Shown here: one piece after another, positions 1 through 48,872 of the stretch
How positions within the stretch are numbered: the stretch's first letter is position 1
Layout of the letters: each line of letters starts with the position of its first letter
Assembly (NCBI RefSeq): GCF_003945595.2
Contig: NW_024104448.1
Location: forward strand, 10,309 to 74,308
Reading direction: 5' to 3'
DNA length: 64,000 nucleotides
Source of the DNA: Pipra filicauda
Lineage: Eukaryota; Chordata; Aves; Passeriformes; Pipridae
Translations under genes and position numbers: made by a program
Notes under the pieces: model-generated
Databases searched by the model: none
Told to the model about the DNA's origin: nothing
The model's input: only the letters and a program-made list of their open reading frames with translations

Positions 1-3000
1 GACAAAAGGTGCCACCACAGAAAACTCTTCCTGCCCAAGAAGTGCCCAGCCTGCACCAACTACACCTGAAGCCAAAGCTTCCAGACTTTTTTTCCTGGTG
101 GAAAGAGCTGCTGTTCCCTTTTTCCTGGTGGAAAGAGCTGCTGTTCCCTTTTTTCAGCCCTGCACTGCAATGGCCTGTCCCACCTCCTGGAAAATTGAAT
201 CCAAATGAAGATTCCTGCCAGACAAAGGTGCCACCACAGAAAACACTTCCTGCCCAAGAAGTGCCCAGCCTGCCGCAACTACACCTGAAGCCAAAGCTTC
301 CAGACTTTTTTTCCTTAGGGAAAGAGCTGCTGTTCCCTTTTTTCTGCCCTGTGCTGCAGTGGACAGTCCTACCTCCTGAAAAACTGAATGCAAATGAAGA
401 TTCCTGCCAGACAAAAGGTGCCACCACAGAAAGCTCTTTGCTGCCCAAGAAGTGCCCAGGCTGCCCCACCAACTGCACCTCAAAACCTAAGCTTCCAGAC
501 TCTTTTTCCTGGTGGAAAGAGCTGCTGTTCCCTTTTTTCAGTTCTGTGCTGCAATGGCCAGTCCCACCTTTCGAAAAATTGAATCCAAATGAAGATTCCT
601 GCCAGACAAAAGGTGCCACCACAGAAAGATCTTTGCTGCCCACGAAGTGCCCAGGCTGCCCCAACAACTGCACCTCAAAGCCTCAGCTTCCAGACTTTTT
701 TTCCTGGTGGAAAGAGCTGCTGTTCCCTTTTTTCAGCCCTGCACTGCAATGGCCGATCCCACCTCCTGAGAAATAGAATCCAAATGAAGATTCCTGCCAG
801 ACAAAAGGTGCCACCACAGAAAACTCTTCCTGCCCAAGAAGTGCGCAGCCTGCACCAACTACACCTGAAGCCAAAGCTTCCAGACTGTTTTTCCTGGTGG
901 AAAGAGCTGGTGTTCCCTTTTTTCAGCCCTGCACTACAATGGCCTGTCCCACCTCCTGAAAAATAGAATCCAAATGAAGATTCCTGCCAGACAAAATATG
1001 CCACCACAGAAAGATCTTTGCTGCCCAAGACGTGCCCAGGCTGCCCAAACAACTGCAGCAGAAGCGAAAGGATCCAGAGATTTTTCCTGAGGGAAAGAGC
1101 TGCTGTTCCCTTTTTTCAGCCCTGCGCTGCAATGGCCGGTCCCACCTCCTGGAAAATTGAATCCAAATGAAGATTCCTGCCAGACAAAAGGTGCCACCAC
1201 AGAAAACTCTTGCTGCCCAAGAAGTGCCCAGCCTGCACTAACTGCACCTCAAAGCCAAAGCTTCCAGACATTTTTTCCTTAGGGAAAGAGCTGCTCTTCC
1301 ATTTTTTCAGTTCTGCGCTGCAATGGCCTGTCCCACCTCCTGGAAAATTGAATCCAAATGAAGATTCCTGCCAGACAAAAGGTGCCACCACAGAAAGGTC
1401 TTGCTGCCCAAGAAGTGCCCAGCCTGCCCCACCAACTGCACCTCAAAGCCTAAGCTTCCAGACTTTTTTTCCTGGTGGAAAGAGCTGCTGTTCCCTTTTT
1501 TCAGCCCTGCACTGCAATGGCCGATCCCACCTCCTGAGAAATAGAATCCAAATGAAGATTCCTGCCAGACAAAAGGTGCCACCACAGAAAACTCTTCCTG
1601 CCCAAGAAGTGCCCAGCCTGCATCCACTACACCTGAAGCCATAGCTTTCGAACTGTTTTTCCTGGTGGAAAGAGCGACTGTTCCCTTTTTTCAGTTCTGA
1701 GTTGCAATGGACTCTCCCACCTTTTGAAAAATTGCATCCAAATGAAGATTCCTGCCAGACAAAAGGTGCCACCACAAAAAGCTCTTTGATGCCCAAGAAG
1801 TGCCCAGGCTGCCCAAACAACTGCACCTCAAACCCTAAGCTTTCGGACTGTTTTTCCTGGTGGAAAGAGCTGCTGTTCCCTTTTTTCAGCCCTGTGGTGC
1901 AGTGGACAGTCCCACTTCCTGAAAAACTGAATGCAAATGAAGATTCCTGCCAGACAAAAGGTGCCACAACAGAAAGCTCTTCCTGCCCAAGAAGTGCCTA
2001 GCCTGCACAAACTACACCTGAAGCCCCAGGTTCCAGACTGTTTTTCCTGGTGGAAAGAGCTGGTGTTCCCTTTTTTCAGCCCTGCAATGCAATGGCCTGT
2101 CCCACCTCCTGAAAAATAGAATCCAAATGAAGATTCCTGCCAGACAAAAATTGCCTCCAGAAAAAGCTCTTTCTGCACAAGGAGTTCCCAGGCTGCCCCA
2201 CCAACTGCACCTGAAGCCAAAGCTTCCAGACTTTTTTTCCTTAGGGAAAGAGCTGCTGTTCCCTTTTTTCAACTCTCCTCTGCAATGGCCTGTCCTACCT
2301 CCTGGAAAATGGATAGCAAATGAAGATTCCTGCCTGACAAAAGGTGCCACCAGAAAAAGCTCTTTCCTGCCCAAGAAGTTCCCAGGCTGCCCCACCAACT
2401 GCACCTGAAGCCAAAGCTTCCAGACTTTTTTTCCTGGTGGAAAGAGCTGCTCTTCCATTTTTTCAGTTCTGCGCTGCAATGGCCTGTCCCACCTCCTGGA
2501 AAATTGAATCCAAATGAAGATTCCTGCCAGACAAAAGGTGCCACCACAGAAAGGTCTTGCTGCCCAAGAAGTGCCCAGTCTGCCCCACCAACTGCACCTG
2601 AAAACCAAAGCTTCGAGATTTTTTTTCCTGGTGGAAAGGGCTGCTGTTCCCTTTTTTCAACTCTCCTCTGCAATGGCCTGTCCTACCTCCTGGAAAATGG
2701 ATAGCAAATGAAGATTCCTGCCAGACAAAAGGTGCCACCAGAAAAAGCTCTTTGCTGCCCAAGGAGTTCCCAGGCTGCCCCACCAACTGCACCTGAAGCC
2801 AAAGCTTCCAGACTTTTTTTCCTGGTGGAAAGAGCTGCTGTTCCCTTTTTTCAGCCCTGCACTGCAATGGCCTGTCCCACCTCCTGGAAAATTGAATCCA
2901 AATGAAGATTCGTGCCAGACAAAAGGTGCAACCACAGAAAACTCTTGCTGCCCAAGAAGTGCCCAGCCTGCACCAACTACACCTGAAGCCAAAGCTTTCG

Positions 3001-5609
3001 AACTGTTTTTCCTGGTGGAAAGAGCTGGTGTTCCCTTTTTTCAGCCCTGCACTGCAATGGCCTGTCCCACCTCCTGAAAAATTTAATCCAAATGAAGATT
3101 CCTGCCAGACAAAATATGCCACAACAGAAAGATCTTTGCTGCCCAAGACGTGCCCAGGCTGCCCAAACTACTGCAGCAGAAGCGAAAGGATCCAGAGATT
3201 TTTCCTGAGGGAAAGAGCTGCTCTTCCATTTTTTCAGCCCTGCACTGCAATGGCCTGTCCCACCTCCTGGAAAATTGAATCCAAATGAAGATTCGTGCCA
3301 GACAAAAGGTGCCACCACAGAAAACTCTTCCTGCCCAAGAAGTGCCCAGCCTGCACCAACTACACCTGAAGCCAAAGCTTCCAGACTTTTTTTCCTGGTG
3401 GAAAGAGCTGCTGTTCCCTTTTTTCAGCCCTGTGGTGCAGTGGACAGTCCCACTTCCTGAAAAACTGAATGCAAATGAAGATTCCTGCCAGACAAAAGGT
3501 GCCACCACAGAAAGCTCTTCCTGCCCTAGAAGTGCCTAGCCTGCACAAACTACACCTGAAGCCCCAGGTTCCAGACTGTTTTTCCTGGTGGAAAGAGCTG
3601 GTGTTCCCTTTTTTCAGCCCTGCACTGCAATGGCCTGTCCCACCTCCCGGAAAATAGAATCCAAATGAAGATTCCTGCCAGACAAAAGGTGCCACCACAG
3701 AAAGCTCTTGCTGCCTAAGAAGTGCCCAGTCTGCCCCAACAACTGCACCTCAAAACCAAAGGTTCCAGACTGTTTTTCCTGGTGGAAAGAGCTGCTGTTC
3801 CCTTTTTTCAGCCCTGCGCTACATTAGCAAGTCCCACCGTTTAAAAGATAGAATCGAAATGAAGATTGCTGCCAGACAAAAGGTGCCACCACAGAAAGAT
3901 CTTTGATTCACAAGACGTGCCCAGGCTGCCCCAACAACTGCACCTCAAAGCCAAAGCTTCCAGACTTTTGTTCCTAATGGAAAGAGCTGCTGTTCCCTTT
4001 TTTCAGCCCTGCAATGCAATGGCTGGTCCCACCTCCTGAAAAATTGCATCCAAATGAAGATTCCTGCCAGACAAAAGGTGCCACCACAGAAAGATCTTTG
4101 CTGCCCAAGAAGTGCCCAGACTGCCCCACCAACTGCACCTCAAAGCCAAAGCTTCCAGATTTTTTTTCCTGGTGGAAAGAGCTGCTGTTCCCTTTTTTCA
4201 GCCCTGCGCTACATTAGCAAGTCCCACCTTTTAAAAAATAGAATCCAAATGAAGATTGCTGCCAGACAAAAGGTGCCACCATAGAAAGGTCTTGATGCCC
4301 AAGAAGTACCCAGTCTGCCCCAACAACTACACTTGAAGCAAAAGCTTCCAGACTGTTTTTCCTGGAGGAAAGGGCTGCTGTTCCCTTTTTTCAGCCCTGC
4401 GCTGCAATGGCCGGTCGCACCTCCTGAAAAACTGAAAGCAAATGAAGATTCCTGCCTGACAAAAGGTGAAACCACAGAAAGATCTTTGCTGCACAAGAAG
4501 TGCCCAGGCTCCCCCAACAACTGTACGTGAAACCAAAGCTTCCAGACTTTTTTTCCTGGTGGAAAGAGCTGCTGTTCCCTTTTTTCAACTCTCCTCTGCA
4601 ATGGCCTGTCCTACCTCCTGGAAAATTGAAAGCAAATGAAGATTCCTGCCTGACAAAAGGTGCCACCAGAAAAAGCTCTTTGATGCCCAAGAAGTGCCCA
4701 GGCTGCCCCACCAACTGCACCTGAAGCCAAAGCTTCCAGACTTTTTTTCCTTAGGGAAAGAGCTGCTGTTCCCTTTTTTAAGCCCTGCGCTGCAATGGCC
4801 TGTCCCACCTCCTGGAAAATTTACTCCAAATGAAGATTCGTGCCAGACAGAAGGTGCCACCACAGAAAGATCTTTGCTGCCCAAGAAGTGCCCAGCCTGT
4901 ACCAACTACACCTGAAGCCAAAGCTTCCAGACTTTTTCCTGGTGGAAAGAGCTGCTGTTTCCTTTTTTCAGCCTTGTGGTGCAGTGGACAGTCCCACCTC
5001 CTGAAAAACTGAATGCAAATGAAGATTCCTGCCAGACAAAAGGTGCCACCCCAGAAAGATCTTTGCTGCCCAAGAAGTGCCCAGACTGCCCCACCAACTG
5101 CACCTCAAAGCCTAAGCTTCCAGATTTTTTTTCCTGGTGGAAAGAGCTGCTGTTCCCTTTTTCAGCCCTGTGCTGCAGTGGCCTGTCTCAACTTTTTAAA
5201 AAATTGAAAGTAAATGACGATTCCTGCCAGACAAAAGCTGCCACCACAGAAAGCTCTTTGCTGCCCAAGAAGTGCCCAGGCTCCCCCACCAACTACACCT
5301 GAAGCCAAAGGATCCAGACTTTCTTGCCTGGAGGAAAGGGCTGTTTTTCCTTTTTTGTCAGCCCTGCTCTGCAATGGCCAAAGTAGATCCAAAAATTGAA
5401 TGCAAATGAAGATTGTTGCCAGATAAAAGGTGCCGCCACAGAAGCTCTTGCTGCCCAAGAAGTGCCCAGGCTGTTGCACCAACTGCCCCTCAAAGCGAAA
5501 GCATACAGGCTTTCTTTTTTGGGATAAAGGCTGTTGTTTGTTTCTTTTCGGAACCCTGCACTCGTCTCCGAAAATTGAAGGCAAACGACACTTTATCCCA
5601 AAGATGAGG
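1..5609 (+). repeat. ~192-bp satellite array, left arm
   Basis: About 29 head-to-tail monomers, most 190-195 bp. Each carries the landmarks GACAAAAGGTGCCACCACAG, GCCCAAGAAGTGCCCAG, a HindIII site in CCAAAGCTTCCAGAC, the tract TTCCTGGTGGAAAGAGCTG, and a GAATCCAAATGAAGATT end. Monomers differ by scattered substitutions. A sub-class replaces the HindIII-bearing part with AGCAGAAGCGAAAGGATCC (about 1050-1080 and 3170-3200). The last monomer (about 5420-5609) is strongly diverged and borders module M. The array shows open frames on both strands because the monomer has few stops; these are not genes. A zebra finch satellite of about 191 bp is known, but length alone does not establish identity. Confidence 0.95.
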
Positions 5610-6287: not shown

Positions 6288-7291
6288 TGTAAGGGGGATA
6301 CTTTTGAATTAGATGATCAATGGAGCATAGAGGCGTGAGAACGGAATCATATTAGGATGTGAAACCAGCTAGAGTATGGTACAATGTAACTTATGGCACA
6401 AGCTAATTGTAAGGTCCATTGTGCTTTTTAACAAGTCAGCTTGTAAGGTCCATTGTGCTTTTTAGCAAGTCAGCTTGATATCCCCTATTATCAGAGCTGA
6501 GTTCTTCCTTGGTTTTGCTACATATTGCAAGATAGATACATCTACCCTTGAAACACAATGGTAGAGGTCATCCATAGGGGTGAGAAAGATGATGATGGGC
6601 GGAAGATTATGTGGGCAGGGGTCGCTGGCCCCTTACCCTACAAGTAGGGCATGCGCAGGCTGTTGCCATTAGGTAATGATTAGGCGGGGTTTGGCTGCCA
6701 TTCAGGCATCCCCTTATACTACGTACTGGCCCTACGTAGTGTAATGTGGAACTGATAAAAATGGGGTGTCGGAGCTGCTGAGTCGAGCGATGCTCATTAT
6801 TCTACCACCGAGACTGTGTTGCTCCGCGGGGACGCCCGCTAAGCACGGGCACCGACCAGCTGCTGCAGATCCTGACAGCCCTGGCCTGTCTGTGTGGGTA
6901 AGCACAGTTTGATAGGAAGCAACTGAGAGAACAAACTTTTTAATATCCTTTTAGTGTTCCTTTAACTCCCCTTTTATGTTTATAGTCTTTTTTTTTCCCT
7001 TTAGTTTCCCTTTTTACTAACCAATATCGTGTTATCCATAATATTGTGTTAAGATCCTTATTTTGTTTCCCCTTTTTCACTAGTTAATACTGTATTAAAT
7101 GCTGTTTGTAGTGTTTGTTTTAATGCCACCCGATAAGGTAGTTATTTTGTATCCTTTTTTAGTTTTTAATTCCTCTTGCTAAGTTTATTACTATTATTAT
7201 TATTCTCACTGTAATAAAAGATATTTTGTGTGCTTGAGTATTTTTTGGCACTTGTCTTTATTCCGGACACGTATCCGAACGTACTGCTACA
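6288..7291 (+). mobile_element. Solo LTR of the LTR-S family, copy 1
   Basis: Begins TGTAAGGGGGATAC and ends GTACTGCTACA, so it has TG...CA termini. It is flanked by a perfect 5-bp target duplication TACGG (6283-6287 and 7292-7296). The same LTR bounds the provirus at 37788-44590, which defines the family. Visible signals are a TATA-like GATAAAAAT (6754-6762), a poly(A) signal AATAAA (7213-7218) and a consensus 5' splice site GTAAGC at 6898. If transcription starts just after the TATA and ends after the AATAAA, the R region would be about 450 nt, unusually long. U3 carries a ~33-bp direct repeat in two copies (6410-6476). Confidence 0.9.
6718..6762 (+). promoter_or_regulatory. LTR-S core promoter: 8-bp dyad plus TATA
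   Basis: A perfect inverted repeat ACTACGTA / TACGTAGT with a 7-base loop (6718-6740) lies about 13 bases upstream of GATAAAAAT. The arms contain the ACGT core favoured by bZIP factors. The dyad is retained in every LTR-S copy in the window. A promoter role is inferred from position in the LTR. Confidence 0.5.
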
Positions 7292-7327
7292 TACGGCAAG
7301 GACTTCCAGTAGTTCAGTTTTGAGCCA

Positions 7328-7333
7328 GTAGGG
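7328..7333. repeat. 6-bp target-site duplication of the intact provirus
   Basis: GTAGGG here is repeated at 15969-15974 on the other side of the provirus. The unoccupied site is visible at 25924-25929 in the second copy of the same duplicated unit, where CCAGTAGGGCACTGCAG runs uninterrupted. Six-base duplications are typical of alpha- and betaretroviral integrases. Confidence 0.95.
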
Positions 7334-7703
7334 TGTTGTGGACGACGGGATATCAATTTACACGACCACACAATTGATCATGAACTATCCAACTTTGTTG
7401 CTACGTGCTCTGTGCTTATAAAGGTTACAAATTAGCTTCATACATATTACAAAAACTAAGCTCATCATTGGCTTCTAATTACCTAAGTTATATTTGCGCA
7501 AATGCTGTTTCTTTAATCTTCTCATTGTTACTTGTTTGCTATTTGCTCAGCTTTCCCATCCGCTATATTCTTTTCTTCTGTCACGTACCCAGTTTCTCAA
7601 ACACAGTGACCTTCTAATAGTTTTCTCTTACCGTGGGACCAGAGCTATAGCGTCTCTCTCATGTCCCCTTTCTATCAACCATGTTTCTGCAATACTTTCC
7701 ACA
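7334..7703 (-). repeat. 3' LTR of the intact provirus
   Basis: Read on the minus strand it starts TGTGGAAAGTATTGC and ends CCACAACA. It follows a purine tract AAAGAAAACGGGGGAAG (7704-7720), the expected plus-strand primer site. A TATA box CTTTATAAG lies at 7415-7423. The poly(A) hexamer at the position of AATAAA in the 5' LTR is AACAAA here (7394-7399). The env frame overlaps the first 76 bases of the LTR. Confidence 0.95.
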
Positions 7704-8998
7704 CTTCCCCCGTTTTCTTTAGACAGTGATAAAAATACATCATTCATTGCCTTCGTTAGCATGTTCTGTATACACTTAAAAATACAAGGAACGATGCATA
7801 AAGCAGCTAACAATATCAGCAAAAGTGAAATAGCTTGTTTAGCGATCTCAGCAAGCCATGGTCCTAAACCTAACTTTGCTAACCATTCTCTGATAGGATT
7901 CTTTTGGATTTTAAAGTCATTCAAATGACCTTGCATTTCTTTTAGTTTTTGGTAGATGGACTGAGAGTGATCAGAAAGATTCATACAACACATGCCTTCA
8001 AATTCTTCACATCCATGTCCCTGAGCCAGCAATAGAAAATCTATAGCTGCTCTGTTCTGTAAAACAGCATGTCTTATTTCATCAAAGTCATGAGCCAATT
8101 CTCCTAGAATTCTCGAGGTTCTATTCATTTGATCCCTTGCCCAACAAGCTGTTCTTTGGACAAGAACTAGACTCTTTTTTGCTCCAACAGGGGCAAATAG
8201 AGATGCAAAGAAGTTTGCCATAGGTGACCAAAATTTAATGGGTTGGTTTTCTACTGATTTACAATACTTATCAAATTCAGTGTCTCGTTTGTTCCGAATA
8301 TTTCTCCTTTTCAACTGCGTTATTTGTCTCATAGTGGGTGTAAACATAGTCAATTTTCCCAAGTAACATGGTCCACCAATGGGGTATTTAGGAATGCCAG
8401 ACCATGCTCTATTGCCACAAATTAAGAAATAACCAGGTGGTAAGTATTTTGGCTTTGTCACACTAACTGACACATTTTTGACATCACCTTGGCACCAGGT
8501 TACTATATCATATGGAGGATTCTGTGCTGTTATATTTGTAGTGGATACATTCCCAATTGTTTGTTGCCATTGTAGAAAGGTCTTTTCCTTATTCATATTG
8601 AGTCTAAAGCAAGAGTCATTTCCATATACAGCTCCAAATAATTGTAACTTACTGGGGCTATCTGTCATGGTCTTGTTTAGACTAGCCACTAACAAAAGAG
8701 ATGTCATGCCTTTGGTGCTGTTTGTGCATTCTTTTGTTACATTGCAGGTTATTTCTACCTTGGTTTTGTTATAATTAGAGCCAATCCATTCTGCAAAATC
8801 ATTTGTATCAAGGTAAGGAATGCCAATTAGACACGTTTGAAAAGGATCTGACGCTGAGGCTAAACTTAAACAGAAGTCCAATTGACCTGTTTGGTTGGCA
8901 AATGTTACCCAAATGTTTTCTCTGGGCCCTACAGGGATGCTGGGATGTCCTTGTGTTATCAGGATTATTTTCAAAATCCAAAACCATAAAGAAATCAT
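7628..8998 (-). CDS. env: Env glycoprotein, alpharetrovirus-like, open frame
   Basis: A 456-aa envelope precursor. Residues 1-17 look like a signal peptide. The surface subunit is short (to about residue 238) and has about nine N-glycosylation sequons. A furin-type site RNKR ends at 238. The transmembrane subunit has the hallmark CX6CC motif at 330-338 (C330, C337, C338), linked in gamma- and alpha-type Envs to a covalent surface-transmembrane bond. A membrane anchor lies at about 388-410, followed by a cysteine-containing tail. The N-terminal region has the spacing seen in alpharetroviral surface proteins, with CLSL and CLIGIP motifs at 43-61. The ATG overlaps the stop of accessory copy B as TAATG. 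Env is normally made from a spliced RNA; I did not locate the acceptor. Receptor use and fusion competence cannot be judged. Confidence 0.9.
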   Translation of the reverse strand: MISLWFWILKIILITQGHPSIPVGPRENIWVTFANQTGQLDFCLSLASASDPFQTCLIGIPYLDTNDFAEWIGSNYNKTKVEITCNVTKECTNSTKGMTSLLLVASLNKTMTDSPSKLQLFGAVYGNDSCFRLNMNKEKTFLQWQQTIGNVSTTNITAQNPPYDIVTWCQGDVKNVSVSVTKPKYLPPGYFLICGNRAWSGIPKYPIGGPCYLGKLTMFTPTMRQITQLKRRNIRNKRDTEFDKYCKSVENQPIKFWSPMANFFASLFAPVGAKKSLVLVQRTACWARDQMNRTSRILGELAHDFDEIRHAVLQNRAAIDFLLLAQGHGCEEFEGMCCMNLSDHSQSIYQKLKEMQGHLNDFKIQKNPIREWLAKLGLGPWLAEIAKQAISLLLILLAALCIVPCIFKCIQNMLTKAMNDVFLSLSKENGGSVESIAETWLIERGHERDAIALVPR

Positions 8999-9613
8999 TA
9001 TCTTTGACCATGTGCCTCTATACAGTAATCTAGATATTGTTGTGGATCGCCTTCAAAGGGACCACCAGGGTATATTGTTATTAAAGGTGTGTCCTTCTGA
9101 CACCTGCTTGCTATTATTTCTGTACCTTTGATTATACTCAATCTTTTTATAATATAATTAGTGTCCCAGCGCAAACCAGCTAATATTCCTTGTTCTTCAG
9201 TTTCAAATAATTGTAATGCTTCAGCTATTGGCAAACCTGTTGTTTGCTCTAATTTACGTATATATGACTGTAATGATAATGTGAAAGAACACTTTCTGCA
9301 CCAAATACCAAACAAATTAATTTGTCCAAGCCATCAAACTGCTTCCACAAGTTTTACATCTAAAAGCAATCAAGGCCAAGCAATCTGGCTCTTTGCATGC
9401 TAAGCAATACTCTATACCAAAGTCTCTTAATGAAAAATAATACAGCAAATTCAGCAATTGGACATACTCCTCATAATTATTACACTGTTGAATCTTTAAT
9501 TGTATGTCTTTGGGTAACCCTTTAATTTCATCCAATTGTGGTAGAAGCAACAGACGAATTTCTTCCTCTAGTCTTTCTCTTCCTGTCTCTGTTATGGTTG
9601 GAACTCGGAACAT
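8998..9613 (-). pseudogene. Accessory ORF copy B, broken
   Basis: The second of two tandem copies of a cysteine-rich ORF between pol and env. It starts MFRVPTITE and aligns along its length with copy A. It is split into two frames: the first half stops at about 9317 and the second half runs 9315-8998. Relative to copy A there is one extra base near 9330, and a tryptophan position reads as a stop in the shifted frame. CxxC pairs CLAC and CKTC lie in the first half and CRKC in the second, matching copy A. It overlaps the end of copy A by 86 nt, exactly as copy A overlaps pol. The stop overlaps the env start codon. Function unknown. Confidence 0.8.
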
Positions 9614-10241
9614 TCACAGTAGTTTGAATACTGCGATTATATTTCTTGACACAAAGGTCTAAATATTTCTGTGGATTCCCTTGAAAAGGTTCATCAGGTA
9701 TTATAACTGTTAAGGGTGTTCTTTTCCGACAACGGGCAGCTATTATCTTAATGCCTCTTATGATGTCTATGCGCCTGATAATATATTTTGTGTCCCAACG
9801 TAAATATGCTAAAGTTTTTTGCTCATAACTTTCAAATAGTTGCAAAGCTGTTTCTAGTGGCAAACCAGTGGTTTGTTGTAATTCGTGTTGCCACGTCTCC
9901 AAGAATGATACAAATGCACAAAGTTTACACCAGATACCCGATAGATTATATTGTTCTATCCACCACTTATTTCCACAAGTACGGCACTTAATAGCAACCC
10001 AAGCTAAGCATCCTAATTCTTTACAAGCAAAACAATGCCAAATTCCAAAGTCTCTCAGCGTAAAGCGATATAGTGCACCTAATAAAAGAATATAAGATTC
10101 ATAAGTATCACAATGCTGTATCTGTGATTGTATATCTTTAGGCAGTCTTTTTATCTCACGTAACTGTGGCAGCAACAGAAGATTGATCTTCGTCACGAGC
10201 CGTCTCTTTTCCGCTTCTGTTGCCACTGGAGCTCGGAACAT
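9528..10241 (-). CDS. Accessory ORF copy A, cysteine-rich, unknown function
   Basis: A 237-aa frame starting at MFRAPVATE. The frame is open to an earlier ATG at 10301, but I chose 10241 because copy B starts at the equivalent residue. It has three CxxC pairs (70-73, 86-89, 105-108) plus C44 and C78, which suggests a zinc-binding fold. An alpha-helical, leucine-rich N-terminus and a conserved RWDTKYII block near 148 follow the same order in copy B. The last ~27 residues are basic (RKRKTRGR) and arise because the duplication copied the end of pol into this frame. It overlaps pol by 86 nt in another frame. I see no signal peptide or membrane helix. No family assignment; its position resembles that of retroviral accessory genes. 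Confidence 0.75.
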   Translation of the reverse strand: MFRAPVATEAEKRRLVTKINLLLLPQLREIKRLPKDIQSQIQHCDTYESYILLLGALYRFTLRDFGIWHCFACKELGCLAWVAIKCRTCGNKWWIEQYNLSGIWCKLCAFVSFLETWQHELQQTTGLPLETALQLFESYEQKTLAYLRWDTKYIIRRIDIIRGIKIIAARCRKRTPLTVIIPDEPFQGNPQKYLDLCVKKYNRSIQTTVNVPSSNHNRDRKRKTRGRNSSVASTTIG

Positions 10242-12816
10242 CCAGCACAGCTCGTGTCCACTTGGCAGGTATCCAAAGAGGTCCCTGTGGCGAAGATACA
10301 CAGAGATAACCTCTACCCCAATACAATACTTTTGCCGGATCTTGCCAAATACCTGTACGTGGGTCTTTAAATCTTACCCATACTTCTGGTGAGCTTTCTA
10401 TTTTTTGTTCTGCCATATAATGAGTTACTGCTGGGGGAACCTTCTGGTCCCCAAACACACAAAGGTGATTTAGCACAAATAACACTTTGCTCAATCTCTC
10501 TTTTATATCTACAACTTGTCTGTGCTTTTCTAAATATGTTTTTAAAGTATGATGAGCTCTTTCTATAATGGCTTGTCCAGTGGGAGAATGAGCAATACCT
10601 GTACGATGTGTTACTTGCCATTTCTGCATAAACTGGTGTACTCTGGTACCCGTATAGGCAGGTCCATTATCTGTTTTTACTTGTTGTGGTTTCCCCGTTA
10701 CTGCAAAACATTCACACAGGTGTCTTTTAACATGTAGGGCCTTTTCTCCTGTCTGAGCTGTAGCCCATATGAAATGACTATATGTATCAATACATACATG
10801 TATATATTTGAACCTCCCAAAGGGTGCATAATGTGTGACATCCATTTGCCAGATCTCATTACTCTTCAACCCTCTAGGATTCACTCCCATACCTAATCCC
10901 ACACCACTATTATGATTGCTACATGCTGCACAGGATCTAACAATGTTTTTGGCATCATTTAAGGTGATATCAAACATCCTCTTTAGCCCTCTAGCATTTT
11001 GATGATACTGTTCATGATTTTTCTGTGCTTTGATAAATTCTTCTTCACTCTCTGTAGCCATAGAAACTAACTTGTCTGCTCTAGCATTTCCTTCGCCTAA
11101 CCCAATGTCCCATTTGTGACTACGTACATGTATGACAGCATATTCATGATCTCTGTTAGTTACTGCTAACCATAATTGACAAAATAACTGAAATAATCTC
11201 TTATTTTGAACTTCTTTAATTAGAGCTCCTTCTATCCTGTCTACTACTCCTGCTACATAAAATGAATCAGTAACAATATTAAGGGGTCTATTCATGCTAG
11301 CCAAGGCTCTGACTACTGCTAGCAATTCTAAGGTCTGCAATGAGTCTGTGGGGTCTCCTGTTATGATTTCATGTTTCCATTCTCCCTTTTCTACCCAAGT
11401 GAGAGCTGCTGTGTGAGATTTTTTGCCAGCATCTGTGTAAACCGTCCGGGCATGTGGGATTGGTTGCTCCTGTTTCTTAGGTTTCAGTATCCATTGCCAG
11501 GAGCCAATCCATGCCGTAGGAACATTATTCAATTTACTGGTAATTATAGGACATGATAACCCTAATAATGCCTCCTGGAGATTTTCATCAGTACACAGAT
11601 ACCAATCAAGAACATTTTTCTGCATTGGCAATCGTATGCGTACAGGTTCCTGAGCATCAATCTGTAATACACGCTCTCTACCCTTTTTTATTAAAGCTGC
11701 TAACATTTCAATTTTTTGTAAGAGTGTTTTAGACTGTTGTATGCTAGTCGAGAGCCATTCTATGACACCTATATCCTCCCCCGTTTCTGTTTGTGATTGT
11801 GTAATGGCTCCTAAGACATATCGTTTATCAGCCCAAAAAGTAAGTTCCAAAGGCAGGTCCCACTGTCGCCTTCGAACACGGCCTTGAGTGACACAGTCTA
11901 CAGTTTGTTGGAGGATACGTTGTTGGTGCTTTGTTACGGTGATTCTTGCTGCTGGGTCTGTTCCTTTTAATAGGGGTCGCAGCTCAGCCAAAAGGTCAGC
12001 AGGGATTCCTACTATTGGACGCAACCATTGTAAATCTCCAAGGAGTTTTTGTGCATCATTTACAGTACGTAATTTTGTCTGAAGTATCAATTTTTGTGGG
12101 ATAACAGCATGGCGGGAAATAGTCCATCCCAAATATCTCCAAGGTTCTGTTGTCTGAATTTTTTCATTTGCTATCATTAATTTAAATTGTTCCAAATGTT
12201 TACGAATTATTTGTATCTGTTGGGGTTCAAACTCTTCAGGTTGACAGAATAAAATATCATCCATATAGTGATAGATTATGCAGTTAGGCCATCTTCGTCG
12301 TAGGGCTTGTAATGCAGTGTCCACATATAGCTGACATAGGGTAGGACTATTTTTCATCCCTTGTGGTAATACTGTCCACTCAAACCTTTGATCAGGTTTT
12401 TCTCGATTGATTGCAGGTAATGTAAAAGCAAAACGTTTAGTGTCACGAGGATGTAATTGAATTGTAAAGAAACAGTCCTTTAAATCTATAATTAGTAAAA
12501 ACCAATCCATAGGAAGCATTGCAGGATTTGGTAGTCCAGGCTGTAAAGCTCCCATGGCTTCCATTTGTGAGTTAACTGCTCGCAGGTCATGCAATAACCG
12601 ATATTTTCCTGACTTTTTCTTTATTACAAATATGGGTGTATTCCAAGGACTAGTAGAAAGTTTTAAATGTCCTTGATCAAATTGTTCTTGTACTAATTGA
12701 TGAGCAATTTCCAGGCTTTCCCGTTTTAAAGGCCATTGCTTAACCCATACTGGAGTATCAACCACCCAAGTAATAGGAATTGGGAAAGACCAAGCAATGG
12801 CTATTCCCCCAAAGGG
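10156..12816 (-). CDS. pol: Pol: reverse transcriptase, RNase H, integrase
   Basis: The frame is entered from pro at about 12816; the first in-frame ATG is at 12765, and residue numbers count from it (869 aa). Reverse transcriptase spans about 1-250 with the catalytic YMDD at 167-170. RNase H carries D445, E480, D500 and D564. Integrase has an HHCC zinc site (H584, H588, C612, C615) and catalytic D642, D699 and E735 with D-35-E spacing. No internal stops are seen. The domain order and the separate pro frame fit betaretroviruses. The last ~29 codons overlap accessory copy A and were duplicated with it. Pol is probably made only as a Gag-Pro-Pol fusion through two -1 frameshifts. Confidence 0.95.
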   Translation of the reverse strand, partial: PFGGIAIAWSFPIPITWVVDTPVWVKQWPLKRESLEIAHQLVQEQFDQGHLKLSTSPWNTPIFVIKKKSGKYRLLHDLRAVNSQMEAMGALQPGLPNPAMLPMDWFLLIIDLKDCFFTIQLHPRDTKRFAFTLPAINREKPDQRFEWTVLPQGMKNSPTLCQLYVDTALQALRRRWPNCIIYHYMDDILFCQPEEFEPQQIQIIRKHLEQFKLMIANEKIQTTEPWRYLGWTISRHAVIPQKLILQTKLRTVNDAQKLLGDLQWLRPIVGIPADLLAELRPLLKGTDPAARITVTKHQQRILQQTVDCVTQGRVRRRQWDLPLELTFWADKRYVLGAITQSQTETGEDIGVIEWLSTSIQQSKTLLQKIEMLAALIKKGRERVLQIDAQEPVRIRLPMQKNVLDWYLCTDENLQEALLGLSCPIITSKLNNVPTAWIGSWQWILKPKKQEQPIPHARTVYTDAGKKSHTAALTWVEKGEWKHEIITGDPTDSLQTLELLAVVRALASMNRPLNIVTDSFYVAGVVDRIEGALIKEVQNKRLFQLFCQLWLAVTNRDHEYAVIHVRSHKWDIGLGEGNARADKLVSMATESEEEFIKAQKNHEQYHQNARGLKRMFDITLNDAKNIVRSCAACSNHNSGVGLGMGVNPRGLKSNEIWQMDVTHYAPFGRFKYIHVCIDTYSHFIWATAQTGEKALHVKRHLCECFAVTGKPQQVKTDNGPAYTGTRVHQFMQKWQVTHRTGIAHSPTGQAIIERAHHTLKTYLEKHRQVVDIKERLSKVLFVLNHLCVFGDQKVPPAVTHYMAEQKIESSPEVWVRFKDPRTGIWQDPAKVLYWGRGYLCVSSPQGPLWIPAKWTRAVLDVPSSSGNRSGKETARDEDQSSVAATVT

Positions 12817-13721
12817 TGATCATTGGAGAGTTTCATTCCAATTTGTGTTAAAACATCTCTCCCTATTAAGCATTGTACTGTTGCTGGAAGTTGTACAACA
12901 GACAGAACAACATTGGCTACACGACCTTCCACTTCTATACTTATAGTAGGAGTTCGCGTAGCAATTGAAGTACCTCCAACGCCAGTCACATTTGTAGTAG
13001 AAGGTTGCAGAGGCCAATATTTCGGCCAACAATGAGGTGCTATGATACTAGAGTCTGTTCCAGTGTCTAGTAAAGCATCCAGTGTTTTTGTTTGATCTTT
13101 CCAGATAATTGTAACTTTATGTTTTGGTCGTTCGCTTAAATCTAATGTCAATAAGGTAAGTCCTTTTGTAGAACCAAATCCACGATCTCCACGTTGCATT
13201 AATTGTCGGTCATTGGTCAAAGGTTTTGTAAACTGTGGTAAGGGTATTAATTGAGCAATGCGTTGTCCTTTAGGAATTTTTAAAGGTGGAAAAATAGTAT
13301 ATGCCATAACCATTACCTGTCCAGTATAATCAGCATCAATAAGTCCAGGCAACACAAATAATCCAGCAAGACTAGCCGATGATCTTCCTATCAGCAATGC
13401 ACCAAACACTTGTTCATTTATTATTAAAGGTCCATAAATCCCGGTGGGAATCTTTTGAGGTTGGGTGGATAACAAGGTAACTTCTACTGCTGTTGCCAAA
13501 TCCAATCCGAGGCTGCCGGCTGTGGCAGGTTGTAATCCGAGACTATTGGTTGAGGTGGGTTGTAATCCGCAACTGTCGGCTGGGGTAGACTGCAGCTGCT
13601 TTCCTGTCCGTGGAATGGATTGTTCTGTGAAAAGTTGTTGGCTGGAGTCATCTGTGCTGCAGCGACGACTTGTGTCTTTGCGCGGCCACTGCTGTTCCTC
13701 GCGCTCCGTCGTGAGTTTCCC
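12801..13721 (-). CDS. pro: Pro: dUTPase plus aspartic protease
   Basis: The frame is read after the gag-pro shift at 13721. A trimeric-type dUTPase occupies about 13502-13166: it has a GLIDADYTG motif and a C-terminal RGDRGFGST motif that closes the active site. A retroviral protease follows, with the catalytic triad DTG (13067-13059) in LLDTGTDSS and the flap/C-terminal motif LIGRDVL. It ends at a TAG at 12803-12801. A dUTPase in the pro frame is a recognised feature of betaretroviruses and some relatives. The frame is open upstream to about 13835, but the frameshift site marks the natural entry point. Confidence 0.9.
   Translation of the reverse strand, partial: GKLTTEREEQQWPRKDTSRRCSTDDSSQQLFTEQSIPRTGKQLQSTPADSCGLQPTSTNSLGLQPATAGSLGLDLATAVEVTLLSTQPQKIPTGIYGPLIINEQVFGALLIGRSSASLAGLFVLPGLIDADYTGQVMVMAYTIFPPLKIPKGQRIAQLIPLPQFTKPLTNDRQLMQRGDRGFGSTKGLTLLTLDLSERPKHKVTIIWKDQTKTLDALLDTGTDSSIIAPHCWPKYWPLQPSTTNVTGVGGTSIATRTPTISIEVEGRVANVVLSVVQLPATVQCLIGRDVLTQIGMKLSNDHPLGE
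12810..12816 (-). promoter_or_regulatory. Candidate pro-pol -1 frameshift heptamer
   Basis: The minus strand reads CCCTTTG in pro register (C CCT TTG), five codons before the pro stop at 12803-12801. The pro and pol frames differ by exactly one backward base. CCCTTTG fits the X XXY YYZ pattern but is not among the most efficient known heptamers. I did not fold a downstream pseudoknot. Confidence 0.5.
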
Positions 13722-15325
13722 GAACGATTTCGGCAGGCAGCAGTGTTGTGGGTGGAGCTCTGGCACTGCTGACACCAAACTCCTGTCGCTCTGCATTCTT
13801 TTCGGAAATGTCCAGTGGCTCCACATCGATAACATTTTGATCGAGTTTTTCCTTCTGCAAAATTATGTGCTTTTGCTTGAAGGGGTGCAAGAGCAGCTAA
13901 AACCTGAGCTTGGGAACTTTGAGCCTGCTCTTTAAGTCCCTTAGCTAGATCTTGAATAGCATTAACTAAAAATGCATTTTCCCCTGTAGGAACAACTAAT
14001 GCTTTTTCTAATAACTCCTCAATAGTCCAATAAGGACCCATCGTACTTATTATTTGCTTAATTGCTGAAGTAGCATTTTGCAACACACACTGTTTTAACA
14101 TAGTTCCTTTCATATAATCTGGTACTCCCGCTCGAGTGATAGCAGCTGTTAACTTGTCAACATATTCTCCAAATGATTCATCCTTTCCTTGTTTTAAGCC
14201 CATATACATAGGTACTCCTCCTGGCTCTTTAACTCTTTCTAAAGCCCTTCTAACAAGATCCATTGCCTCTCTAATCTTATCTGGGCCAAGATGAACTTGT
14301 GCCTCAGGGCGTGTATATGGCCCCATGCCCATTAATTCTTCTACAGTGACACCATACAAAGGGTCTCCAGGTTGTCTTTGTTCCGCTACACTTTCATGAA
14401 CTAACGCTTGCCAATGTGCATTAAATAACAATTGTTGATGTTCAGTCAATATCATACGAGTTATAGATCGGAGATCAGATGGCAGTAAAAGATGTGTATA
14501 CCAAAAATAATCTAACATTTGTTTAGTTGGTTCAGCATGTAATCCAAATTCACTGACTGTACTCCGTAATTGTGCCAAGAACTTCCAATCTAATGCAGTA
14601 ATAGCAGCGTTCATTCCTCCCTGCCCATCCAGATTATAAGTAACGGGAAAAGCATGTGAATCTACAGCTTGCAGCCCATGAGAATCACCCTGCTCCATAC
14701 AGTGCTTAGCAAACGCAGCCCAAGTTTCTCTCCGCTCTTTTACCACGGCCTCCGCCAGGTCACTGAATGCCCCAGGGACAGGCTCTTTGGTCGAGTGAGC
14801 AGGAGGAGGAGGTGTGGGCCAAGGGTCAGTCTGACCGCTGGGCACATCGGCCAGGGGAGGTGGTGCAGTAGGAGCTGCAGATGTCTCTGATTCTAGCAAC
14901 CCGTCTGAATTTATTTTAGAAAGATCAGGGGGCACAGTGGGGAGGTGAACTGTCTGCATAGCTGGAGGAGAAGGCTTATAAGAAAACCAATCAGCATTTC
15001 TATACTCTTTGTTCTGCTGTCTAACATTTAGTGCTTGCTCTGCTGCTCTGCGTTTAGCCTCATGTTGCAACAATGTATTATAAACCACCTTCCAAAGCTT
15101 TCCCAGCTTTTTTGCAACTTTATCATCATCTAAAACAGCCTCCCATATTTTATCACCAAATTTACGCCACTCTTCTAAAGAATGCACAGTATGAGGATTA
15201 ATAAAACACCCTTTTTCAGTACCATAATCAAGTAACCTAGGGAGTTCTTTTTTCAAATCTAAATCTTTAACTCCCTTTTTCTGTAAAAATTCAGAAAATA
15301 AACTATATGCTGCTTGCCTATCCAT
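13484..15325 (-). CDS. gag: Gag polyprotein
   Basis: A 613-aa open frame. The matrix-like N-terminus begins MDRQ and lacks Gly2, so N-myristoylation is not expected, unlike most betaretroviruses. A PTAP late-domain motif (ESCRT-I recruitment) lies at 152-155 in a proline-rich linker with a PPPP run at 172-175. Capsid follows from about 185, with the major homology region at about 379-396. Nucleocapsid has two CX2CX4HX4C zinc knuckles (C498-C511 and C518-C531) for RNA packaging. After the frameshift codon the unshifted frame continues about 76 residues into a Q/P-rich tail with four similar ~10-residue units ending at 13484. The start ATG follows a 273-nt leader. Confidence 0.95.
   Translation of the reverse strand: MDRQAAYSLFSEFLQKKGVKDLDLKKELPRLLDYGTEKGCFINPHTVHSLEEWRKFGDKIWEAVLDDDKVAKKLGKLWKVVYNTLLQHEAKRRAAEQALNVRQQNKEYRNADWFSYKPSPPAMQTVHLPTVPPDLSKINSDGLLESETSAAPTAPPPLADVPSGQTDPWPTPPPPAHSTKEPVPGAFSDLAEAVVKERRETWAAFAKHCMEQGDSHGLQAVDSHAFPVTYNLDGQGGMNAAITALDWKFLAQLRSTVSEFGLHAEPTKQMLDYFWYTHLLLPSDLRSITRMILTEHQQLLFNAHWQALVHESVAEQRQPGDPLYGVTVEELMGMGPYTRPEAQVHLGPDKIREAMDLVRRALERVKEPGGVPMYMGLKQGKDESFGEYVDKLTAAITRAGVPDYMKGTMLKQCVLQNATSAIKQIISTMGPYWTIEELLEKALVVPTGENAFLVNAIQDLAKGLKEQAQSSQAQVLAALAPLQAKAHNFAEGKTRSKCYRCGATGHFRKECRATGVWCQQCQSSTHNTAACRNRSGNSRRSARNSSGRAKTQVVAAAQMTPANNFSQNNPFHGQESSCSLPQPTVADYNPPQPIVSDYNLPQPAASDWIWQQQ
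13715..13721 (-). promoter_or_regulatory. gag-pro -1 frameshift heptamer GGGAAAC
   Basis: The minus strand has GGGAAAC in exact gag register (G GGA AAC, codons 536-537), just after the second zinc knuckle. The pro frame is the -1 frame. GGGAAAC is a known slippery heptamer of simian betaretroviruses. A stimulatory structure downstream was not computed. Confidence 0.85.
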
Positions 15326-15598
15326 ACCTACGTCAGCGCTGTTGCAGCCCTTTCAAGGTCAGGCAGCACGTACGGCAGAGCTTGTCTGTACAACGCTCCG
15401 GGTCTGAAGTTGCACTTTTATGCCAACTTTTTCCGACCAGCCTTGCTGCTAAGGCTCCGGCATCTTGTCATCTCAACCGTGATTCCCCCGTTTTCTTTTA
15501 ATCCAATCGAGAAGTCCTCTTTAAGCTGAGAAGTCTTCTTTTAGTTCAGAGTCAGAGTCGAAGTCGGGAGTCGAAGTCGGGAAGTCGGGGTCACCATT
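15326..15598 (-). promoter_or_regulatory. Leader with tRNA-Trp-type primer binding site
   Basis: Two bases after the 5' LTR the minus strand reads TGGTGACCCCGAC (15584-15596), which matches the first 13 bases of the tRNA-Trp primer site used by alpharetroviruses; the match then ends. The next ~45 bases are made of GACTTC and GACTC(T) repeats (about 15545-15590). The remainder should hold packaging signals, which I cannot identify by eye. Confidence 0.8.
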
Positions 15599-15968
15599 TG
15601 TTGTGGACGACGGGATATCAATTTACATGACCACACAATTGATCATGAACTATCCAACTTTATTGCTACGTGCTCTGTGCTTATAAAGGTTACAAATTAG
15701 CTTCATACATATTACAAAAACTAAGCTCATCATTGGCTTCTAATTACCTAAGTTATATTTGCGCAAATGCTGTTTCTTTAACCTTCTCATGGTTACTTGT
15801 TTGCTATTTGCTCTGCTTTCCCATCCGCTTTATTCTTTTCTTCTGTCACGTACCCAGTTTCTCAAACACAGTGACCTTCTAATAGTTTTCTCTTACCGTG
15901 GGACCAGAGCTATAGCGTCTCTCTCATGTCCCCTTTCTATCAACCATGTTTCTGCAATACTTTCCACA
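15599..15968 (-). repeat. 5' LTR of the intact provirus
   Basis: 370 bp with TG...CA ends and six differences from the 3' LTR. It keeps both a TATA box (CTTTATAAG, about 15680-15688) and the poly(A) signal AATAAA (15664-15659 on the minus strand), only about 20 bases apart, so R is very short. It is followed by the GTAGGG duplication at 15969-15974. Confidence 0.95.
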
Positions 15969-16065
15969 GTAGGGCACTGCAGTACTGTTGTGTAAACACT
16001 AAATAAGAAAGGGAAGGAAGAAAATAGAAACTTTTTTTTTTGGTTGCAAATAGTTTTTTTTCACG

Positions 16066-16285
16066 TGGGTTTAGGGTGGATATTTGGGAAAGGTTCTTCC
16101 CTCCGAGGGTGGTTGGCACTGGACCAGGCTCCCCAGGGCAGTGGTCACAAACCAAGGCTGGCAGAGTTCAGGCACACGGTGTGACTCTTGGGGTCGGTCC
16201 TGTGCCGGGCAAAGGCTTGCACTCGACGCTCCTCGTGGGTCCCTTCCCACTCAGCATGTTCGGTGATGGTGCGATGAGTTCCCTG
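16066..16285 (+). mobile_element. CR1 LINE 3' end fragment
   Basis: Matches the conserved CR1 3' region in order: GGTTTAGGGTGGATATT, GGTTCTTCCCTCCGAGGGTG, CACTGGACCAGGCTCCCCAG, GTGTGACTCTTGGGG, CTCGTGGGTCCCTTCC and a degenerate ATTCTATGATT-like tail. It is 5'-truncated, as is usual for CR1. CR1 is the dominant LINE of birds and other sauropsids. It is followed by a pyrimidine tract ending TTTTTAG at the edge of the CpG block. Confidence 0.85.
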
Positions 16286-27810: not shown

Positions 27811-28910
27811 AGACATTAATCCGAGCAAATGTATGGATTTTTATTTCCAATTGTACAACAAGTCATTCAACTATTTGCATACTCCAAAGCTGGGTTGGAA
27901 ACTTCTCCCTCAGAAACAAGAAAAACTGTTTTCCGAGGCTGTTACTGACAGCCATGGCAGAGTTTCCAATAACAACTCTCCATTCTTGAAATGCAAAGCC
28001 TGAAAAATGAAACAAGCGTTAACCTGGAATTCTTGTTGCCAGCACTGATCTGGACAGAAGTTATTAGAGAGTGGAGCAAAGCTAGCACCACAAATAACCT
28101 TGGGCTCTCTAGCACCGCTCTGCATTCATTGGTCATGGCACCAAAGTTTTGCTTTTCAACCCATCTGCTAAGGAAACCTTGCCAGAAGAAAAGTGAGCTT
28201 ATAACACTACTTTTCTTAAGAAGTTAGGAGGCCTTAATCCAGTGTACACAGATGAGACCCTGAAATAGGAGAGAGGCCAGTTGCTGATGATCAGTGCAGA
28301 TGAGGAATCAGCTCTGCTGAGTAGGCTTCAAGCTTTGTGATTTTTACAAGTGCACTATTTCAACTCTGTTGTAGAAGAAACACTCTTTTCTGTTTGATCA
28401 ACTTTCCACTTTCAGAATACTGGAGTTTATCCCTCAAATTCAGCCTGTAGTTTCAAAAGATAAAAATCCTTCGAGGAAACCTTTCAGCCTCAGTAGCCAA
28501 TTGCAACATGCCCAGGGAAGTTCAGCAACAGCACCATTCAGTAAATACACTGTTCTGGACCAGACATCCCAGAGAGATTGAGCTCCAGTGCTAAACCCCA
28601 TAGAGTGTCAACTGCCATAAGAGCTGATTTTTGGCTTTGCTGAGATTCTCTCTTGTTTCCTTTGGTGTACCTGGCACATCTGGAGCAAGGGCTCAGGGCA
28701 GAAGTACATCCTTAGCAGGGTCAGTGCAGATCATGTCACAAGAGTATCGATTTCTGTAATTAAGGAAGGCAATTAGATACAGGAATTTATTTTTCTAGCC
28801 CCTCTTTCTCGACTACCGGTGTCTTACTTCATCATGCCCTGTGAGCAGTCCCAGTGCTCTGTGATTGATGCCGTAAGGGACTTGCTAACAGGGAACAAAC
28901 ACCTCCTAGA
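27811..28910 (+). repeat. Segment U, copy 1 (1.1 kb, low-copy)
   Basis: Non-satellite sequence found three times: here, and inverted at 47771-48872 and 52513-53618. It carries on its minus strand the terminal-exon-like signals described for the 47771 copy. The right end runs into satellite at AAAAAAGGTGCCACCACAG. I do not recognise a gene. Confidence 0.8.
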
Positions 28911-47770: not shown

Positions 47771-48872
47771 TTCTACGAGGTGTTTGTTCCCTGTTAGCAA
47801 GTCCCTTACGGCATCAATCACAGAGCACTGGGACTGCTCACAGGGCATGATGAAGTAAGACACCGGTAGTCGAGAAAGAGGGGCTAGAAAAATAAATTCC
47901 TGTATCTAATTGCCTTCCTTAATTACAGAAATCGATACTCTTGTGACATGATCTGCACTGACCCTGCTAAGGATGTACTTCTGCCCTGAGCCCTTGCTCC
48001 AGATGTGCCAGGTACACCAAAGGAAACAAGAGAGAATCTCAGCGAAGCCAAAAATCAGCTCTTATGGCAGTTGACACTCTATGGGGTTTAGCACTGGAGC
48101 TCAATCTCTCTGGGATGTCTGGTCCAGAACAGTGTATTTACTGAATGGTGCTGTTGCTGAACTTCCCTGGGCATGTTGCAATTGGCTACTGAGGCTGAAA
48201 GGTTTCCTCGAAGGATTTTTATCTTTTGAAACTACAGGCTGAATTTGAGGGATAAACTCCAGTATTCTGAAAGTGGAAAGTTGATCAAACAGAAAAGAGT
48301 GTTTCTTTTACAACAGATTTGAAATAGTGCACTTGTAAAAATCACAAAGCTTTAAGCTTACTCAGCAGAGCTGATTCCTCATCTGCACTGATCATCAGCA
48401 ACTGGCCTCTCTCCTATTTCAGGGTCTCATCTGTGTACGCTGGATTAAGGCCTCCTAACTTCTTACGAAAAGTAGTGTTATAAGCTCACTTTTCTGGCAA
48501 GGTTTCCTTAGCAGATGGGTTGAAAAGCAAAACTTTGGTGCCATGACCAATGAATGCAGAGCGGTGCTAGAGAGCCCAAGGTTATTTGTGGTGCTAGCTT
48601 TGCTCCACTCTCTAATAACTTCTGTCCAGATCAGTGCTGGCAACAAGAATTCCAGGTTAACGCTTGTTTCATTTTTCAGGCTTTGCATTTCAAGAATGGG
48701 GAGTTGTTATTGGAAACTCTGCCATGGCTGTCATTAACAGCCTCGGAAAACAGTTTTTCTTATTTCTCAGGGAGAAGTTTCCAACCCAGCTTTGGAGTAT
48801 GCAAATAGTTGAATGACTTGTTGTACAATTGGAAATAAAAATCAATACATTTGCTCTGATTAATGTCTTAAC
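47771..48872 (+). repeat. Segment U, copy 2, with terminal-exon-like signals
   Basis: Inverted copy of 27811-28910. On this + strand a pyrimidine tract and AG (GTTTCATTTTTCAG, ending 48679) precede a 44-codon frame from 48682 to a TGA at 48814, and AATAAA follows at 48834-48839. Among the three copies, several differences are synonymous or in-frame, including a 3-bp insertion in the 52513 copy. Upstream, a short frame at 48543 has a signal-peptide-like start (MTNECRAV, then a leucine-rich run). I cannot assign either. They could be chance signals in an old element. Confidence 0.4.

What the first reader, a model, noticed from the sequence alone, without database searches (positions are those of the whole stretch)
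8998..10241. Tandemly duplicated, unassigned accessory ORF between pol and env of a young provirus
Two paralogous frames with three conserved CxxC pairs each follow pol. The geometry is exact: copy A overlaps pol by 86 nt (10241 to 10156) and copy B overlaps copy A by 86 nt (9613 to 9528). A single 628-bp duplication therefore copied the ORF with the last ~29 pol codons. As 628 is not a multiple of three, the copied pol tail is read as a basic C-terminus of copy A. I know of no avian retroviral accessory gene with this layout. Copy A stays open while copy B is broken, so copy A may be functional.
Basis: partly seen in the sequence, partly recalled or inferred. Interest (0 to 1): 0.85.

Follow-up and report, generated by a model that had tools for sequence, protein, structure and literature searches.

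The report
Paired orphan accessory genes, bird retrovirus
A retrovirus fossilised in what looks like a bird genome carries, between its enzyme and envelope genes, two related copies of a protein gene for which no relatives were found; one copy seems to have been captured from another virus rather than duplicated in place, as has been proposed for the second accessory gene of HIV-2.

Summary
Copy A (10241-9528, 237 aa, open) overlaps pol by 86 nt. Copy B (from 9613) overlaps A by 86 nt and is frameshifted here, but open in 3 of 5 amplified copies of this provirus. Twelve loci of the host genome, about 8 insertions, carry the gene; five insertions have one 207-codon gene in the same place. Ten cysteines coincide in A, B and that lineage. 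pN/pS is below 1 in six of six lineage pairs, one borderline. An acceptor-like site lies 43 nt before the start in three lineages. In 11 of 11 distant pol-env pairs measured there is no room for the gene. No usable match in Pfam, PDB or 5.8 billion proteins, where env found 219. A "single 628-bp duplication" is not supported: the pol 3' end plus A form a divergent block (about 10740-9645), while B and env match a single-copy relative. Capture by recombination, as proposed for vpx, fits better. Function is inferred only.

The parts
15599..15969 (-). 5' LTR (371 bp)
13484..15325 (-). gag (613 aa; p24 domains, CCHC knuckle)
12801..13835 (-). pro frame: dUTPase + aspartyl protease
10156..12765 (-). 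pol (RT, RNase H, integrase); best PDB matches 7sr6 and 7usf, listed as Polymerase and Integrase (that these are HERV-K and MMTV is recalled)
9645..10737 (-). Block of divergent origin: 3' end of pol plus copy A. The 5' edge is from a likelihood breakpoint scan; the 3' edge is where similarity to the C794 pol tail begins, judged by eye; both approximate
10284..10285 (-). Splice-acceptor-like site (exon would start at 10284), 43 nt before the ATG of copy A; the same site in C794 and in two of two S loci scored
   Evidence: home-made score, prediction only
15327..15328 (-). Best donor-like site of the leader stretch scored (last exon base 15328), just before the gag ATG
   Evidence: prediction only
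9528..10241 (-). Copy A of the accessory gene, 237 aa, open; CxxC at residues 70, 86, 105; last ~29 codons are a pol-type tail read in another frame
8999..9613 (-). Copy B, frameshifted: 98-aa frame 9613-9317 and a second frame to 8999; open (204 aa) in 3 of 5 amplified copies
7628..8998 (-). env (456 aa; Avian_gp85, TLV_coat; CX6CC read directly in the sequence), ends inside the 3' LTR
7334..7704 (-). 3' LTR; 6 of 370 differences from the 5' LTR

Best explanation
This is an accessory (non-gag/pro/pol/env) gene family of a class II, betaretrovirus-like, apparently avian retrovirus lineage. Shown: the gene starts inside the end of pol and ends at env; it exists as one copy in one lineage and as two diverged copies here; it is held in frame with ten fixed cysteines; the 11 distant class II loci of the same genome that could be measured have no room for it; and copy A sits in a divergent block. 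Inferred: it is translated from a singly spliced mRNA; the cysteines bind zinc (CxxC-x12-CxxC ribbon plus a third CxxC pair); the two-gene form arose when reverse transcriptase switched, out of register, between co-packaged genomes of two related viruses, leaving the A gene of one in front of the B gene of the other; and the protein is a fast-evolving adaptor that counters a host factor, so that holding two diverged versions paid, as for vpr and vpx. Likelihood as I judge it: real gene 0.95; gained in this clade 0.85; recombinant origin of A 0.75 (lowered from 0.8 on checking, because the env of C351 is nearer to C794 than to the window); zinc binding 0.75; host-antagonist role 0.4.
For: Frame and cysteines: 199 codons align without an indel between A, B and S; ten cysteines shared. 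Selection: pN/pS 0.28-0.56 in six of six lineage pairs; bootstrap values of 1 or more in 0 of 1000 for four pairs, 2 for S-C794 and 26 for B-C794. The gene evolves faster than its neighbours: omega 0.36-0.52 in the unsaturated between-lineage pairs and 0.45 for A-C351, against 0.04-0.10 for pol upstream of 10666 and 0.11-0.22 for env. Expression: acceptor-like site 43 nt upstream in the window, C794 and two S loci. Gain: in 11 distant loci with pol and env both found, about -25 to 260 nt lie between pol residue 169 and the env start, against about 1253 here and about 630 in L010 (my arithmetic). Recombination: pS to C794 is 0.20-0.54 in pol upstream, 0.62-0.88 in the three 60-codon windows starting 10665-10485, 0.81-0.83 in A, then 0.21-0.25 in B and 0.24 in env, while C794-S is 0.15-0.34 in that pol block; the breakpoint scan was reached by 0 of 2000 permutations; the gene tree splits A + C351-A from the rest with 100% ultrafast bootstrap. 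The two-gene form is not a one-off: C351 keeps the end of A fused by a deletion to the end of B.
Against: No transcript, protein, structure or activity was seen. Three of five S insertions share a TAG at codon 94, and C254 and C775 lost the gene by deletion, so copies moved or persisted without it. Net charge differs sharply (A +17.8, S +17.8, B -4.5), so the copies may not do the same thing. pN/pS for B-C794 is only marginally below 1, and pairs within S give omega 0.29-1.04 from very few changes. pS between window and C794 falls back to 0.35-0.39 in the last two pol windows before A, although the window remains the commonest odd one out there (28 of 42 and 6 of 9 sites). In env, C351 (two genes) is nearer to C794 (one gene; pS 0.13) than to the window (0.23), so C794 could have lost A, or env was exchanged; the history is reticulate. 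No free-standing virus of the A lineage was found, so the donor is inferred. C794-S similarity in the pol block is lower in pS than upstream, so part of the pattern may come from exchange between those two.
Confidence: 0.6

Rival explanations
1. Simple tandem duplication in one virus genome, old enough for A and B to diverge, with later loss of A from the C794 and S lineages.
For: Exact 628-nt offset and shared pol tail; adjacent paralogues are a usual product of duplication; the env of C351 (two genes) is nearer C794 (one gene) than the window, which makes a loss in C794 easier.
Against: The divergent block reaches about 500 nt into pol, outside the repeated unit. The B start overlap is nearer to the C794 pol tail (17 of 86 differ) than to A (35 of 86). 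Separate losses in S and C794 would be needed.
Confidence: 0.2
2. The gene encodes a nuclear RNA-export factor or transcription activator (like betaretroviral Rec/Rem or lentiviral Tat/Rev) rather than a host-factor antagonist.
For: A and S are strongly basic (pI 9.7 and 9.6), and A has an arginine/lysine-rich tail; cysteine-rich activators are known in retroviruses (recalled).
Against: B is acidic (pI 5.2); the basic tail of A is a by-product of the junction and is absent from S and B. A regulator essential for expression should not be stopped in three of five S insertions, unless supplied in trans.
Confidence: 0.25
3. The frame has little or no function: an insertion of host or foreign sequence carried along, with apparent constraint from the pol overlap and short time since insertion.
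For: omega 0.36-0.52 in the closer between-lineage pairs and up to 1.04 within S; a shared stop in three of five S insertions; deletion derivatives.
Against: Codons 30-199, outside the overlap, still give pN/pS 0.28-0.53 in five of six pairs with 0-2 of 1000 bootstraps reaching 1; no indel over 199 codons at saturated synonymous divergence between A and the others.
Confidence: 0.08
4. It is a very diverged member of a known family (lentiviral Vif, papillomavirus E6, another zinc-binding viral protein or a captured host gene) that sequence searches cannot see.
Against: No usable Pfam or PDB match and only one weak NCBIfam match (bacterial DUF2002, E 0.0041, one of six members) for the members or profile given; no match in the own genome outside the viral loci except one at E 0.89.
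Confidence: 0.25

Closest known systems
Lentiviral vpr/vpx gene pair
   Same: Two adjacent, diverged paralogous accessory genes; the origin of vpx has been put down either to duplication of vpr or to recombination with another virus (passages of PMC3986551 seen).
   Different: Different genus and host; no sequence match; Cys-rich rather than the helical Vpr fold (recalled); placed directly between pol and env.
Lentiviral vif
   Same: Starts within the 3' end of pol, about 200 aa, made from a singly spliced mRNA (vif facts recalled; here only a predicted acceptor).
   Different: No Pfam match; no BC-box-like or PPLP motif in A, B or S; the HCCH pattern (recalled) cannot form in B, whose only His is residue 201.
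Betaretroviral extra genes (JSRV orf-X, MMTV rem/sag, HERV-K rec)
   Same: Extra coding capacity in class II retroviruses (recalled).
   Different: orf-X lies in pol, rem/rec are spliced from env, sag lies in the LTR (recalled); none is a free 200-aa gene between pol and env; no family match was listed.
Alpharetroviruses and avian ERVs with gp85-type env
   Same: Env is related (best 41% identity over 96% of the query to P0001; an ALV env 52% over 46%).
   Different: In 11 of 11 distant loci of this genome with both genes measured, pol lies directly next to env.

Membership tests
Retroviral accessory genes (as a kind) | Extra frame beside gag, pro, pol and env in a provirus with LTRs | tested here: met
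Retroviral accessory genes (as a kind) | Conserved as protein across virus lineages | tested here: met
Retroviral accessory genes (as a kind) | Made from its own spliced mRNA | tested here: inconclusive
   acceptor-like site only; no RNA data
Retroviral accessory genes (as a kind) | Dispensable for basic replication but useful in the host | not testable with these tools
   a stop in 3 of 5 S insertions is compatible
Lentiviral Vif | Sequence match to the family model | tested here: not met
   no Vif model listed
Lentiviral Vif | HCCH zinc motif and BC box (recalled) | tested here: not met
   B has one His only; the BC-box patterns tried were found in none of A, B, S
Papillomavirus E6 | Match to E6 model; two CxxC-x29-CxxC modules (recalled) | tested here: not met
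   no E6 model listed; the pairs are CxxC-x12-CxxC-x15-CxxC
Papillomavirus E6 | E6 fold | not tested
   structure prediction failed and was then switched off
vpr/vpx | Homologous sequence | tested here: not met
   none listed
Class II (betaretrovirus-like) provirus | dUTPase in the pro frame; class II RT/IN; 6-bp target duplication (class assignment of these traits recalled) | tested here: met

The most novel reading that the evidence does not exclude
A previously undescribed complex avian retrovirus lineage evolved its own family of zinc-binding, host-counteracting accessory proteins at the position of vif, and then acquired a second, diverged version by out-of-register recombination with a related virus: a parallel, outside lentiviruses, of the vpr/vpx story.
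Probability: 0.37. Interest if true: 0.82.

Novelty: new variant of a known kind. Interest (0 to 1): 0.64.

Why it matters
As far as I recall, known avian retroviruses are genetically simple. An accessory gene family for which no sequence relatives were found, gained in one clade, suggests that accessory genes arose again in an apparently avian class II lineage. The pair gives a second case for asking whether new accessory genes come from duplication or from capture. If the protein counters a host factor, it would point to an antiviral defence in birds that may not yet be known.

Tried and rejected
Homology of the accessory protein: Pfam, PDB sequences, NCBIfam, IMG/VR (8, 70) and 5.8 billion proteins with A alone (7) and with a six-row profile (54) gave nothing usable. 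IMG/VR is a weak negative, since env found nothing there either, and the protein search reaches only relatives that share short exact words. Weak leads set aside as chance: PDB 2g7j E 1.2, NCBIfam DUF2002 E 0.0041 for one of six members, DUF4287 E 0.08-0.22 and IBR_1 E 0.88, C884 E 0.89, S against L040 E 0.004 over 21 aa on the opposite strand. Origin of the gene from gag, pro, pol or env of the same provirus: best hhalign result is the Cys-rich end of gag, probability 10%, E 0.0032 for one comparison; rejected as a shared Cys pattern. Rfam (7000-16200) and tRNA scans were empty. Papers: eight of ten searches used; in the listings shown I saw no described avian ERV with an accessory gene between pol and env. 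This is not proof of absence from print, as most subscription journals are not held. Read in passages only: PMC3758190, PMC4272516, PMC3986551; all others seen as search listings.

The own-genome env search did not complete.

Full report
WHAT IS THERE. On the minus strand of the window lies a full-length provirus: 5' LTR 15969-15599, gag, a dUTPase-protease frame, pol, two accessory frames, env, and 3' LTR 7704-7334, flanked by a 6-bp repeat CCCTAC. The LTRs differ at 6 of 370 sites. Pol looks class II: its best solved relatives are 7sr6 and 7usf, listed as Polymerase and Integrase; that these are HERV-K and MMTV is my recall. Env carries the Avian_gp85 model. The host is therefore probably a bird; its name was not given.

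THE OBSERVATION. Copy A runs 10241-9528 (237 aa), overlapping pol by 86 nt. Copy B starts at 9613, 628 nt on, overlapping A by 86 nt. Each copy has CxxC pairs at residues 70, 86 and 105 (for B read from an open sister copy). A is open; B is frameshifted near residue 93. An open stretch as long as that of A did not occur in 500 simulations (maximum 151 codons).

RELATIVES IN THE SAME GENOME. Searches with A (20 matches) and with an S protein (21 matches, the last a chance one) give 12 loci. Five (C799, which is the window, C765, C979, C220, C526) carry A and B and are nearly identical, but share flanking host DNA, 98.6-99.7% identical to the window in the 3' flank. They are one insertion multiplied with its satellite-rich surroundings. 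B is open in three of the five and broken in the same way in two. Five others (C1440, C1188, C1246, C1467, C21) form lineage S: one gene of 207 codons, start overlapping pol by 92 nt in L010, then env. No match longer than 120 bp was seen among their five 3' flanks, so they count as separate insertions. The S frame is open in two and has the same TAG at codon 94 in three. C794 has one B-type gene, open for 165 codons and then broken. C351 has the second half of an A-type gene fused to the last part of a B-type gene, then env: a second two-gene insertion with internal deletions. A pol-end search (307 candidates, 150 scored and matched) added C254 and C775, close relatives that lost the region by deletion.

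A GENE UNDER CONSTRAINT. A, B and S align over 199 codons without an indel, and ten cysteines coincide in all three. Excluding the pol overlap, pN/pS is 0.37 (A-B), 0.36 (A-S), 0.28 (A-C794), 0.51 (B-S), 0.56 (B-C794) and 0.53 (S-C794); bootstraps at or above 1 were 0, 0, 0, 0, 26 and 2 of 1000. A against C351 gives omega 0.45 over 102 codons. Pairs within S differ too little to be informative (omega 0.29-1.04). Pol upstream of 10666 gives 0.04-0.10 and env 0.11-0.22, so this is the fastest-evolving coding part that I measured; gag and pro were not measured.

GAINED IN THIS CLADE. Of 137 further pol-end matches I fetched 16 stretches (L040-L055). No true accessory match was found (one 21-aa hit on the opposite strand, E 0.004). 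In 11 of the 16, pol and env were both found in order, with about -25 to 260 nt between pol residue 169 and the env start. The other five were left out: L040, L045, L049 and L050 showed no env match, and my stretch L054 missed the pol end. The same distance is about 1253 nt here and about 630 nt in L010 (distances are my arithmetic on its table and).

HOW TWO COPIES AROSE. Against C794, synonymous differences in the window's pol are 0.20-0.54 upstream, jump to 0.62-0.88 in the windows starting at 10665-10485, ease to 0.35-0.39 just before A, are saturated through A (0.81-0.83), and fall back in B (0.21-0.25) and env (0.24). Over the same pol block C794 and S are close (0.15-0.34), so the window is the odd one out: at third positions 47 of 62 single-lineage differences are the window's downstream of 10666, against 39 of 111 upstream (Fisher p 2.8e-7), and 0 of 2000 permutations reach the best breakpoint, near 10737. 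The tail read as the C-terminus of A resembles the C794 pol tail, and the similarity starts at about 9645. On a 10-row tree of 300 nt, A and C351-A form one branch, B with C794 another and S a third (100, 82 and 100% ultrafast bootstrap). The simplest account is a template switch, out of register, between an A-type and a B-type virus, plus a second crossover in pol. Against a tidy version: in env C351 is nearer to C794 (pS 0.13) than to the window (0.23), so C794 may once have had A, or env was exchanged. Old duplication with repeated loss is not excluded.

HOW IT MAY WORK. The strongest acceptor-like site near the gene lies 43 nt before the start codon, here (second best of the whole body scored) and in C794, C1188 and C1440 (best of the stretch scored) (my own simple score, frequencies recalled). 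Downstream of that site the accessory ATG is the first start codon (read). The cysteine pattern suggests a zinc ribbon. Position, size, speed of change, absence or breakage in some copies and the pairing of two diverged versions fit an accessory protein aimed at the host. That last step is inference by analogy with vif and vpr/vpx, not a test.

KNOWN OR NEW. No usable sequence relative was found by the tools tried, although the same protein library returned 219 relatives of env. As a kind it is a retroviral accessory gene; as a family it appears new. The debate on the origin of vpx, duplication against recombination, is described in PMC3986551 (passages).

CHANGES ON RECHECKING. The pol-env distances were recomputed from one pol residue (range now -25 to 260 nt); the pS easing before A, the within-S omegas and the env position of C351 were added; for the last of these the odds of capture were lowered from 0.8 to 0.75, the overall confidence from 0.62 to 0.6, and the novel case from 0.38 to 0.37.

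Noticed in passing
window 119-5518, 21296-24168, 28908-31557, 45361-47774, 57144-64000: Long arrays of a 194-bp satellite, with repeated G+C-rich blocks between them; the provirus sits inside this repeat landscape and was multiplied with it (five contigs share its 3' flank).
   Followed up: partly
window 31582-33619 (+): Remnant of another retroviral pol (RNase H- and integrase-like frames, judged by eye).
   Followed up: no
L011, L012, L013, codon 94 of the accessory frame: Three separate S-lineage insertions share the same TGG-to-TAG stop, so a copy with a stopped accessory gene seems to have kept producing new insertions.
   Followed up: partly
L038 ~1613 and L039 ~2016: Two related proviruses carry deletions that begin within a few bases of each other near the end of pol (window about 10250), one ending in env and one in the LTR; a recurrent breakpoint is unexplained.
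   Followed up: partly
window 7628-7704: The env frame runs past the start of the 3' LTR, so its last codons lie in the repeat.
   Followed up: no
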